Of a stretch of DNA of 12,208 nucleotides, positions 6,839-8,639 are shown piece by piece (position 1 is the stretch's first letter; the number at the start of each line of letters is the position of its first letter). The stretch lies in the NCBI GenBank assembly GCA_019234175.1, contig JAFALP010000329.1, forward strand, positions 1 through 12,208. Direction: 5' to 3'. The stretch is from Actinomycetota bacterium. GTDB lineage: Bacteria; Actinomycetota; Thermoleophilia; Gaiellales; Gaiellaceae. The notes below the pieces were generated by a model. It worked only from the letters and a program-made list of their open reading frames with translations, did not search any database and had not been told where the DNA came from. The position numbers and the translations under genes are program-made.

Positions 6839-8004
6839 GCCGGGCCGTCATCCTCTCCGGCGTTCGCACGCCGATCGGCCGTTACGGGGGTGCGCTCGCG
6901 GGCGAGCGCCCCGACGACCTCGGGGCGCTCGTCATCGCCGAGGCGGTGAAGCGCTCCGGTGTCGACGCGAACGACATCGAGGACGTGTGGCTCGGGTGCG
7001 CGAACCAGGCGGGCGAGGACAACCGCAACGTCGCCCGCATGTCGGCGCTGCTCGCGGGGCTGCCGCAGTCCGTCGCCGGCGTGACGGTGAACCGCCTGTG
7101 CGCGTCGGGACTGAGCGCGATCGTCGGCGCCTGCCACGCCATCGCGGCCGGGGACGGCGACCTCTTCGTCGCCGGCGGCGTCGAGTCGATGACGCGCGCG
7201 CCGTATGCCTTTGCGAAGCCGGACAAGGCGCACCCACGCGGCAACGTCACCGTGTGGGACACGCATCTCGGCTGGCGGTTCCCGAATCCGAAGATGGAGG
7301 AGATGTTCGCGCTCGAGTCGATGGGCGAGACGGGCGAGAACGTCGCCGAGCGCTACGACGTCACGCGCGAGGACCAGGACGCGTTCGCGCTCGCGTCGCA
7401 CCAGCGCTGGGCCGCCGCCGCGGAGGCCGGCCGTTTCGACGACGAGCTCGTTCCCGTCGGCGACGTCGTGCGCGACGAGCATCCGCGGCCCGATACGACG
7501 TTGGAGAAGCTCGCCGCGCTCAGGCCGGCGTTCCGCGCGAACGGAACCGTCACCGCCGGCAACTCCTCCGGCATCAACGACGGCGCCGCGGCGCTCGTGA
7601 TCGCGTCGGAGGAGCGCGCGCGCGACCTCGGCGTCGAGCCCATGGGAACGTTCGTCGCCAGCGCGGTCGCCGGCGTCGACCCACGCGTCATGGGAATCGG
7701 CCCCGTGCCCGCCGTGCGGAAGCTCCTCGCGCGTGCGGGCGTCGGCGTCGAAGACATCGACCTCGTGGAGCTGAACGAGGCGTTTGCCTCACAGAGCCTC
7801 GCCGTCGTCCGCGAGCTCGGGCTCGACCACGCGAAGGTGAACGTGAACGGCGGCGCGATCGCCATCGGCCATCCGCTCGGCATGAGCGGCGCGCGCCTCG
7901 TCGTGTCGCTGCTGCACGAGCTGCGCCGGCGCGGCGGCCGCTACGGGCTCGCCACGCTTTGCGTCGGCGTCGGCCAGGGACAAGCGGCGTTGTTCGGGCG
8001 CTGA
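6826..8004 (+). CDS. Thiolase, acetyl-CoA acyltransferase (PcaF-like)
   Basis: A 392-residue thiolase that cleaves 3-oxoacyl-CoA with CoA, or runs in reverse. The nucleophile is Cys92 in V-N-R-L-C-A-S-G. Catalytic His349 lies in G-G-A-I-A-I-G-H-P-L-G-M-S-G-A-R and Cys379 in C-V-G-V-G-Q-G. The block VWDTHLGWRFPNPKM followed by ESMGETGENVAERY resembles beta-ketoadipyl-CoA thiolases (PcaF/PaaJ) more than short-chain acetoacetyl-CoA thiolases, so aromatic or fatty acid breakdown is likely. ATG 6826 overlaps the MqnD-like gene by 13 bp. GTG 6835, sharing GTGA with that gene's stop, is an equally credible start and gives 389 residues. The stop overlaps the next ATG by one base (TGATG). Confidence 0.93.
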   Translation: MGRVSRAVILSGVRTPIGRYGGALAGERPDDLGALVIAEAVKRSGVDANDIEDVWLGCANQAGEDNRNVARMSALLAGLPQSVAGVTVNRLCASGLSAIVGACHAIAAGDGDLFVAGGVESMTRAPYAFAKPDKAHPRGNVTVWDTHLGWRFPNPKMEEMFALESMGETGENVAERYDVTREDQDAFALASHQRWAAAAEAGRFDDELVPVGDVVRDEHPRPDTTLEKLAALRPAFRANGTVTAGNSSGINDGAAALVIASEERARDLGVEPMGTFVASAVAGVDPRVMGIGPVPAVRKLLARAGVGVEDIDLVELNEAFASQSLAVVRELGLDHAKVNVNGGAIAIGHPLGMSGARLVVSLLHELRRRGGRYGLATLCVGVGQGQAALFGR

Positions 8005-8639
8005 TGGACCTCGACCTTCGCCGGCGGACGTACGCGTTCATGGTCGAGACCGGCCGCGCGCCGCAAGCCGAGGAGCTCGGCGACCGCGACGAAGTGCTGT
8101 CCGGGTGGCGCGAGCTTCATGACGCGCACGCGCTCGTCCTCAATCCGGCCACCGACGAGATTCGGATGCTCAATCCGTTCTCGACGGTTCCGAGCGCGTT
8201 CCGCGTGCATGCGCGCGACCGGTGGTGGTACGCCAACTGTGCATGGGACGCGTTCGGCGTCTGCGCGTGCCTGCACGTCGACGGGCGCGTCGAGGCGTCG
8301 TGCGCCGACTGCGGCGAACCGATCGCGGTCGAGGTGCGTGACGGCCTCCCCGACGACGAGAGCCTCCTCTTCCACGTGCTCGTCCCCGCCTCCCACTGGT
8401 GGGACGACATCGTCTTCACCTGAACGACGATGAACCTCTTCCGGTCGGAAGAGCACATCGCGCGCTGGCTCGGCGGACGCGAGCCGGGCGCGACGATCAC
8501 GGTGACGAAGTTGAGCGAGCTCGCCTTCGCGTGGTGGGACGACCGCGTGGCGCCGGACTGGACGCCGCACACGCGTGAGCAGAACCAGGCAGTCCTCGAC
8601 CGCCTCGGTCTCGTCGGCGAGTTCTGGCGCCTGGGCTAG
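8004..8639 (+). CDS. MerB-like (alkylmercury lyase family) selenoprotein with in-frame TGA
   Basis: Read through one TGA (8421-8423), the frame encodes 211 residues, essentially the length of MerB (212). MerB uses Cys96, Asp99 and Cys159 to break the carbon-mercury bond. Here N-C-A-W-D supplies Cys79 and Asp82, and C-A-D-C-G-E-P supplies Cys100, matching MerB Cys117 with the same 21-residue spacing. The TGA is codon 140 and, aligned on the following F-x-S, falls on Cys159. Downstream, LFRSEEHIARWL and the helical tail to FWRLG look like the family C-terminus. A SECIS-like hairpin begins right after the TGA. I infer selenocysteine at 140. Alternatives are a single-base error or mutation of a Cys codon (TGC/TGT to TGA), or a truncated 139-residue protein. 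The ATG overlaps the thiolase stop by one base. A thiol-organometal or other C-metal/metalloid substrate is inferred. Confidence 0.82.
8428..8460 (+). promoter_or_regulatory. Bacterial SECIS-like hairpin after the in-frame TGA
   Basis: The upper stem is CTCTTCC (8436-8442) paired perfectly with GGAAGAG (8447-8453), closed by the loop GGTC (GGUC in RNA). A lower stem, CGATG (8428-8432) with CATCG (8456-8460), is separated from it by a 3x2 internal loop. The loop begins 19 nt after the TGA. Known bacterial SECIS elements have a short apical loop with G in its first two positions at about 16-37 nt from UGA, and the E. coli fdhF loop also contains GGUC. Such an element would bind SelB and bring Sec-tRNA to the ribosome. 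It lies entirely within coding sequence, as bacterial SECIS elements do. Confidence 0.75.

What the first reader, a model, noticed from the sequence alone, without database searches (positions are those of the whole stretch)
8004..8639. MerB-like selenoprotein: TGA replaces the catalytic cysteine
Seen: one in-frame TGA at codon 140 with clean, family-like coding on both sides, a total length of 211, and Cys79/Asp82/Cys100 spaced like MerB Cys96/Asp99/Cys117. Aligned on F-x-S, codon 140 equals Cys159, the second catalytic thiol of organomercurial lyase. A selenolate there would bind soft metals far more strongly than a thiol. I recall the family name SaoL for MerB-like organometallic lyases tied to a selenocysteine-related gene set, but none of that set is next to this gene, so it may be a separate lineage in a thiolase/MqnD cluster. 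Automatic annotation would split it into a 139-residue truncated gene and a spurious 69-residue gene.
Basis: partly seen in the sequence, partly recalled or inferred. Interest (0 to 1): 0.92.

Follow-up and report, generated by a model that had tools for sequence, protein, structure and literature searches.

The report
Selenium-containing MerB-like enzyme hidden by UGA
This soil-bacterium gene, which standard annotation cuts short at an internal UGA "stop", almost certainly encodes a full-length relative of the mercury-detoxifying enzyme MerB that carries selenocysteine where MerB has one of its two mercury-binding cysteines, and the same hidden selenocysteine recurs in relatives from several bacterial phyla.

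Summary
The 211-codon frame at 8004-8639 has one TGA (codon 140, 8421-8423), and the MerB domain and a confident MerB fold span it. The TGA very probably encodes selenocysteine: (1) column 140 is a stop in 82 of 82 distinct loci (77 TGA, 5 TAG) with homology continuing after it, and Cys in rare full-length homologues; (2) a bacterial SECIS hairpin follows, kept beyond synonymous expectation; (3) five of five TAG genomes checked have a CUA tRNA-Sec, 19 of 20 TGA genomes a UCA one; (4) the own genome has a formate dehydrogenase with TGA at its Sec site. Against: no selA, selB or selC over cut-off in this 84%-complete assembly; a contig ends on the side facing the sister genome's sel locus. The known MerB-like selenoprotein SaoL has Sec in the same column, but this clade stays far below its 140-bit cut-off: a separate, mis-annotated clade with two-Sec relatives. 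Cleavage of an organometal is inferred, not shown.

The parts
8004..8639 (+). full-length MerB-like selenoprotein gene, 211 residues, Sec at codon 140; its start codon overlaps the thiolase stop by one base (TGATG)
8421..8423 (+). TGA = selenocysteine codon 140, equivalent of MerB Cys159
8436..8453 (+). bacterial SECIS hairpin: 7-bp stem CUCUUCC/GGAAGAG with apical loop GGUC (8443-8446), 19 nt between UGA and loop
   Evidence: criteria from PMC13188914 section 5
8238..8249 (+). codons 79-82, Cys-Ala-Trp-Asp: equivalents of MerB Cys96 and, by spacing, Asp99
8301..8312 (+). codons 100-103, Cys-Ala-Asp-Cys; C100 and C103 are each at least 90% conserved in the 36-row alignment
6826..8004 (+). thiolase immediately upstream, overlapping by one base; upstream neighbour only in close relatives
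6026..6838 (+). VitK2_biosynth (MqnA/MqnD-type, PF02621) gene upstream of the thiolase

Best explanation
The locus is one gene for a 211-residue MerB-fold selenoprotein. SHOWN by sequence: the TGA at codon 140 is kept as a sense codon and is followed by a conserved SECIS-type hairpin; the residue takes the place of MerB Cys159. INFERRED: the hairpin recruits SelB with Sec-tRNA; Cys79 and the Sec140 selenolate (ionised at neutral pH, general chemistry) grip a soft metal in an organometallic substrate, most likely an organomercurial; Asp82 protonates the departing carbon; and the bound metal is handed to small thiols or another reductase, since canonical MerA is over its cut-off in few relatives. 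My odds: Sec insertion about 0.97, MerB homology about 0.99, cleavage of a carbon-metal bond about 0.6, mercury as the main substrate about 0.45.
Against: No selA, selB or tRNA-Sec over cut-off in the own assembly. G031 and G032, two other carriers, also lack a selA hit over cut-off, and 4 of 11 carriers (G000, G001, G031, G032) have no tRNA-Sec hit above 51 bits. selA is not clearly enriched with the gene: 8 of 11 carriers against 28 of 50 non-carriers. Rfam has no match for the hairpin, and 7 of 200 shuffles of the 51-nt stretch fold as well. dN/dS is higher after the Sec codon than before it in 7 of 8 comparisons. TGA locus L191 lacks the GGUC loop at the usual place. No peptide, ribosome-profiling or activity data were available to me. 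For function: no widely shared gene neighbour and MerA over cut-off in only 2 of 61 relatives.
Confidence: 0.88

Rival explanations
1. The TGA is a true stop: the functional product is the 139-residue protein, or the gene is decaying.
For: This is how databases hold it: 114 of the 120 listed homologues end at residue 139. No selA/B/C over cut-off in the own assembly.
Against: Homology continues after the codon in all 82 distinct loci, some cut by the contig end; the stop is TGA or TAG and never TAA; the downstream hairpin is kept beyond the protein code; Cys replaces it in full-length homologues; truncation would remove the Cys159-equivalent column, invariant in the 36-row alignment with TGA read as Cys.
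Confidence: 0.02
2. The stop is read by something other than Sec: near-cognate suppression, pyrrolysine in the TAG lineage, or a reassigned stop codon.
For: ARAGORN names the CUA tRNAs tRNA-Pyl.
Against: Those five tRNAs match the tRNA-Sec model at 64-67 bits, and the one in L151 lies between selD and selA. Codon and tRNA-Sec anticodon go together. Pyl or suppression would not need a SECIS in TGA and TAG copies alike. The neighbouring thiolase ends in TGA. UAG-Sec in Geodermatophilaceae is published for other proteins (PMC5330540, passages).
Confidence: 0.02
3. It is a selenoprotein with the MerB fold, but not a lyase: it stores, buffers or delivers a soft metal such as Cu(I) or Hg(II).
Against: Cys79, Asp82 (Glu in the two-Sec clade) and Sec140 preserve the whole MerB catalytic set; the Z to NosL is at the level of common arrangements (note).
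Confidence: 0.22
4. It is a redox enzyme in which Cys79 and Sec140 form a selenenylsulphide and reduce a peroxide or disulphide.
For: Most prokaryotic selenoproteins are thought to act in redox reactions (abstract of PMC9312934, seen); Cys79 and Sec140 should be close if MerB geometry holds (not measured).
Against: The MerB fold and an acidic residue at 82 suggest protonolysis; the two-Sec relatives fit metal binding better than a selenenylsulphide.
Confidence: 0.1

Closest known systems
SaoL (NCBIfam NF040728, MerB-like organometallic lyase selenoprotein)
   Same: MerB homologue; Sec in the same place...DTCUNVMNFF... in L188 and ...GCUNIMNFF... in L189 against ...FTUTTMNLF... here (aligned by eye). 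Listed as a selenoprotein with a CU motif in PMC13188914 (passages).
   Different: Window protein 45.4 bits against a cut-off of 140; none of 9 clade representatives reaches it; TU instead of CU; separate branch in the tree; sao genes were not sought by model beside this gene, but no widely shared neighbour was found.
MerB organomercurial lyase (PF03243; PDB 3f0o, 3f2f)
   Different: Sec replaces Cys159; 24 and 21.7 bits against two MerB models with cut-offs 200 and 193; no mer gene among the seven window genes scanned.
MerB2 (PDB 5c17)
   Different: Has Cys at the Sec site and Ser aligned with Asp82.
UAG-decoded selenoproteins of Geodermatophilaceae (formate dehydrogenases, UGSC proteins, AhpC)
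   Same: Same bacterial family, CUA tRNA-Sec, Sec at TAG (PMC5330540 passages).
   Different: The passages read do not name MerB; the TAG MerB-like genes found here would be an addition.

Membership tests
MerB (PF03243) superfamily | Pfam gathering score | tested here: met
   82.7 bits against 27
MerB (PF03243) superfamily | MerB fold | tested here: met
MerB (PF03243) superfamily | Cys96, Asp99, Cys159 equivalents | tested here: met
   C79, D82 and Sec140; D82 by spacing only, as MerB2 has Ser there; the third as Sec rather than Cys
MerB by NCBIfam (NF033555, NF009710/PRK13239) | curated score cut-off | tested here: not met
   24 against 200, 21.7 against 193
MerB by NCBIfam (NF033555, NF009710/PRK13239) | cleaves organomercurials | not testable with these tools
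   needs enzyme assay
SaoL (NF040728) | curated score cut-off 140 bits | tested here: not met
   45.4 bits; 9 clade representatives: eight at 32.6-63.8 bits, one no match
SaoL (NF040728) | Sec after Cys (CU motif) | tested here: not met
   Thr precedes Sec here; SaoL L188 and L189 have CU
SaoL (NF040728) | other sao genes nearby | not tested
   sao models were not run on neighbours; neighbour clustering alone does not decide it
bacterial selenoprotein | in-frame UGA pairing with Cys in homologues | tested here: met
bacterial selenoprotein | bSECIS (loop 3-9 nt, stem 4-16 bp, G early in loop, 16-37 nt spacing, MFE <= -7.5) | tested here: met
   4-nt GGUC loop, 7 bp, 19 nt, -17.8 kcal/mol over 51 nt
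bacterial selenoprotein | Sec machinery in the genome | tested here: inconclusive
   none over cut-off in the own 84%-complete assembly, which has an fdhA with a Sec-site TGA; selA over cut-off in 8 of 11 carriers
bacterial selenoprotein | selenium in the purified protein | not testable with these tools
   needs mass spectrometry or 75Se

The most novel reading that the evidence does not exclude
A large selenoprotein clade, held in databases as 139-142-residue 'organomercurial lyase', 'alkylmercury lyase' or 'hypothetical protein' entries cut at the active site, uses a Cys-Asp-Sec centre to break carbon-metal bonds without a mer operon; one lineage re-encodes its Sec as UAG together with its tRNA, and a sister lineage, mainly in deltaproteobacterial-type genomes, replaces both metal-gripping cysteines by Sec, giving an Se-Se organometal lyase.
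Probability: 0.5. Interest if true: 0.82.

Novelty: new variant of a known kind. Interest (0 to 1): 0.64.

Why it matters
It shows that many database MerB-like entries are selenoproteins cut off at their active site: of the 120 best homologues listed (of 4077 found), 114 end at residue 139. Two natural experiments follow: TAG and TGA copies matched to their tRNA anticodon, and Cys, one-Sec and two-Sec versions of one active site. They make the question 'what does selenium add to a mercury-handling enzyme?' directly testable. It also bears on gene surveys of methylmercury breakdown in soil, since the annotated product lacks a catalytic residue.

Tried and rejected
Rejected: pseudogene or sequencing error (82 of 82 distinct loci); pyrrolysine (label, but tRNA-Sec model and sel genes beside it); a selB in the own genome (the C134 hit reads by eye as the EF-Tu C-terminus followed by rpsJ). 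Rfam gave no SECIS family at 8380-8520, although the published bSECIS constraints are met. Gene neighbourhood: 657 neighbour proteins from 96 loci (some are two records of one gene; genes called by my own heuristic) gave no cluster of more than 8 loci; the largest reads by eye as an ABC ATPase at scattered positions, the next as purH, in 7 loci (directly upstream in 5; L059 and L230 are one gene). selA co-occurrence was not informative, because the Sec trait is common in the clade. MerA: 2 of 61 genomes over cut-off, one of them (G016) a carrier. A plasmid homologue in Paraburkholderia (29.8% identity to P0003) has Cys at the site by eye; not pursued. In one search weaker matches, mostly without an internal stop, were not looked at. 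The tree is midpoint-rooted with long branches; no direction Sec to Cys or Cys to Sec is claimed.

Literature: searches (18 of 18 papers listed; 4 of 4; 1 of 1; 15 of 98; 12 of 153,143; 12 of 20; 12 of 181) listed no paper on a MerB-like selenoprotein outside SaoL that I could recognise; only listings were seen except for the papers named. Read as passages: PMC9312934, PMC13188914 (section 5 whole), PMC5330540, PMC4525700. Term look-ups only: PMC12013277 (no MerB), PMC2398784, PMC5029168. Haft and Gwadz 2023, Haft and Tolstoy 2025 and Mukai 2016 are not held, so I know them only through citing papers. PMC9312934 credits an 'alkylmercury lyase MerB-like protein' to the studies, whose main texts do not hold the word MerB; supplements could not be read, so this clade may already lie in one.

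Full report
WHAT IS THERE. The frame 8004-8639 on the + strand has 211 codons and one TGA, at codon 140 (8421-8423). Under the standard code the part after it appears as a 69-residue ORF, and the part before it as a 139-residue product. PF03243 (MerB) matches residues 59-177 at 82.7 bits, across the TGA, but only 51.8 bits in the truncated half; the 69-residue piece alone matches no Pfam family. The start codon overlaps the stop of an upstream thiolase by one base; a VitK2_biosynth gene lies before that.

IS THE STOP A SENSE CODON? Of 61 genomes searched (the own one and 60 relatives), 11 have the gene and all 11 have a TGA in it; in G005 the frame is also broken near residue 80. A scan of species genomes gave 225 relatives, of which the best 80 were kept. 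With the 12 loci these are 92 loci, 82 of them distinct over 93 nt: the codon in column 140 is TGA in 77 and TAG in 5, never TAA and never a sense codon. None of the six search peptides spans column 140, so the stop was not selected for; one peptide (MNLFRSEE) lies just after it, so amino-acid conservation there is partly selected for, but codon choice is not. A class-wide search of 399 genomes had 40 with a match. Of the 28 loci L218-L245 fetched from it, 19 are genes already seen; of the 9 new ones 8 have TGA and one (L240) TGT. In databases 4077 homologues were found and 120 listed: 114 of the 120 end exactly at query residue 139, and 4 of the 6 that go on have Cys in column 140. Eight close pairs show dN/dS of 0.25-0.46 over residues 141-211 (0.24-0.50 over 152-211, clear of the hairpin), so the frame after the TGA is under purifying selection, weaker than before it in 7 of 8.

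SECIS. After the codon the mRNA can form a 7-bp stem CUCUUCC/GGAAGAG with loop GGUC, 19 nt from UGA; the 51-nt stretch folds at -17.8 kcal/mol, z -2.13, with 7 of 200 shuffles as good. This meets the four bSECIS constraints in PMC13188914, section 5. Over 82 distinct loci the loop is GGUC in 81; at least 6 of 7 pairs form in 79; both hold in 78. In 500 synonymous shuffles with each gene's own codon usage, both hold in 11.1 on average and at most 21; the stem alone in 36.6 on average and at most 48. Arg is CGG in 77 of 78 cases, against 31% elsewhere in the genes. In four Acidobacteria-type loci (L071, L072, L074, L077) the closing pair changes from C-G to U-A on both sides and Arg becomes Trp, so the RNA is kept while the protein changes. 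Three Cys-coded relatives (L190, L214, L240), all distant, lack the hairpin. Sequences are not independent, so the shuffle figure is not a probability. Departures among stop-coded loci: L046 (= L229) has loop GATC, and L191 has no GGUC loop at the usual place.

CODON AND ANTICODON. I chose 25 of the 80 loci by hand across clades, with all five TAG loci among them. A tRNA-Sec hit over the Rfam cut-off was found in 24 of the 25 genomes. ARAGORN reads CTA as the anticodon in all five TAG genomes (two Blastococcus, two Geodermatophilus, one Modestobacter) and TCA in 19 of the 20 TGA genomes; the remaining one (G071) shows only a tRNA-Ser at its best hit. In one TAG genome (L151) the tRNA lies between selD (388.6 bits) and selA (415.6 bits), both over cut-off. 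In the family search, 112 genomes, 10 with a match, all six strong copies are TAG, each with the same hairpin codons; the four weak matches have no internal stop. UAG-Sec in Geodermatophilaceae is known for formate dehydrogenases, UGSC proteins and AhpC (PMC5330540, passages); MerB is not in those passages. In the tree two TGA copies (L037, Sporichthyaceae; L067, Nocardioides) fall inside the TAG branch (100/88), and both of their genomes have UCA tRNA-Sec. Taken at face value the codon changed more than once, each time in step with the tRNA; gene transfer and rooting leave the direction open.

THE OWN GENOME. It is a 2.15-Mb assembly of 440 contigs, 84% complete. It has no selA, no tRNA-Sec over cut-off and no selB over cut-off (the C134 fragment reads as EF-Tu). 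Yet it has a formate dehydrogenase alpha subunit (154.9 bits, below the family cut-off) with TGA in the sequence ARIUH, the usual Sec site (recalled), followed by a hairpin with loop GGUCU. In the same-genus genome G007, selA, selB (342.5 bits, over cut-off) and tRNA-Sec lie on one contig. The own contig C358 matches that contig's flank up to its own last base, 4029, on the side that faces the sel locus; the other flank of the locus was not found in the own genome. So the sel locus probably fell into an assembly gap. Against this: carriers G031 and G032 also lack selA over cut-off, 4 of 11 carriers have no tRNA-Sec hit above 51 bits while 7 have one above 59 bits, and selA is in 8 of 11 carriers and 28 of 50 non-carriers, which is no clear enrichment.

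RELATION TO SaoL. NCBIfam SaoL gives 45.4 bits, cut-off 140; of 9 clade representatives 8 give 32.6-63.8 bits and one no match. In 297 genomes drawn from the phylum of one two-Sec carrier, 35 match the SaoL model and 2 pass it; both have CU at the place of our Sec. So Sec at this site is a known kind, and this is a separate clade (tree). The 2026 review lists SaoL with one Sec.

A TWO-SEC RELATIVE. In 21 loci (L084, L086, L088-L106), one side of a branch with support 100/100, TGA stands both at the Cys96 and at the Cys159 equivalent, and Asp99 is Glu. After the second TGA all 21 have CGGTCG; after the first, GCGGTC in 16 and GCAGT(C/T) in 5. The first hairpin was not tested statistically.

FUNCTION. 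No neighbour is shared by more than 8 of 96 loci. MerA passes its cut-off in 2 of 61 genomes. I favour an organometal lyase that works outside a mer operon. Protonolysis by Asp82 and stronger grip by Sec140 follow from MerB chemistry and selenium chemistry and are not shown here.

NOVELTY. I rate it a new variant of a known kind.

Noticed in passing
L084, L086, L088-L106 (e.g. L092:6001-6645): Clade of MerB-like genes with two TGA codons, at the equivalents of both mercury-binding cysteines; Asp99 equivalent is Glu. GCGGTC follows the first TGA in 16 of 21, CGGTCG the second in 21 of 21.
   Followed up: partly
L193 (G136): Another MerB-like frame with U at the Cys96-like position (YAAUAID) and at a Cys159-like position (FURKS), unlike the main two-Sec clade.
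   Followed up: no
L037 and L067 against L038, L039, L042, L049, L050: Two TGA copies (Sporichthyaceae, Nocardioides) nest inside the TAG branch of Geodermatophilaceae, while their genomes have UCA tRNA-Sec: a possible gene transfer with codon switching.
   Followed up: partly
L023, L026, L064 (G005): The homologue in this same-genus genome is broken by a frame change near residues 77-82; assembly error or real.
   Followed up: no
L058 and L067 (Nocardioides sp. zg-1230): Two contigs of one genome carry identical 12,645-nt stretches with the gene: recent duplication or assembly artefact.
   Followed up: partly
L148, L150, L151, L152, L156: ARAGORN labels the CUA tRNA-Sec genes tRNA-Pyl; an annotation trap.
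   Followed up: yes
L185 (G000:C434): Own-genome formate dehydrogenase alpha subunit with TGA at the usual Sec site.
   Followed up: yes
G007:C130, G038:C76, G052:C22: MerA-family flavoprotein matches (below the MerA cut-off) with one internal TGA; possible further selenoproteins or frame artefacts.
   Followed up: no
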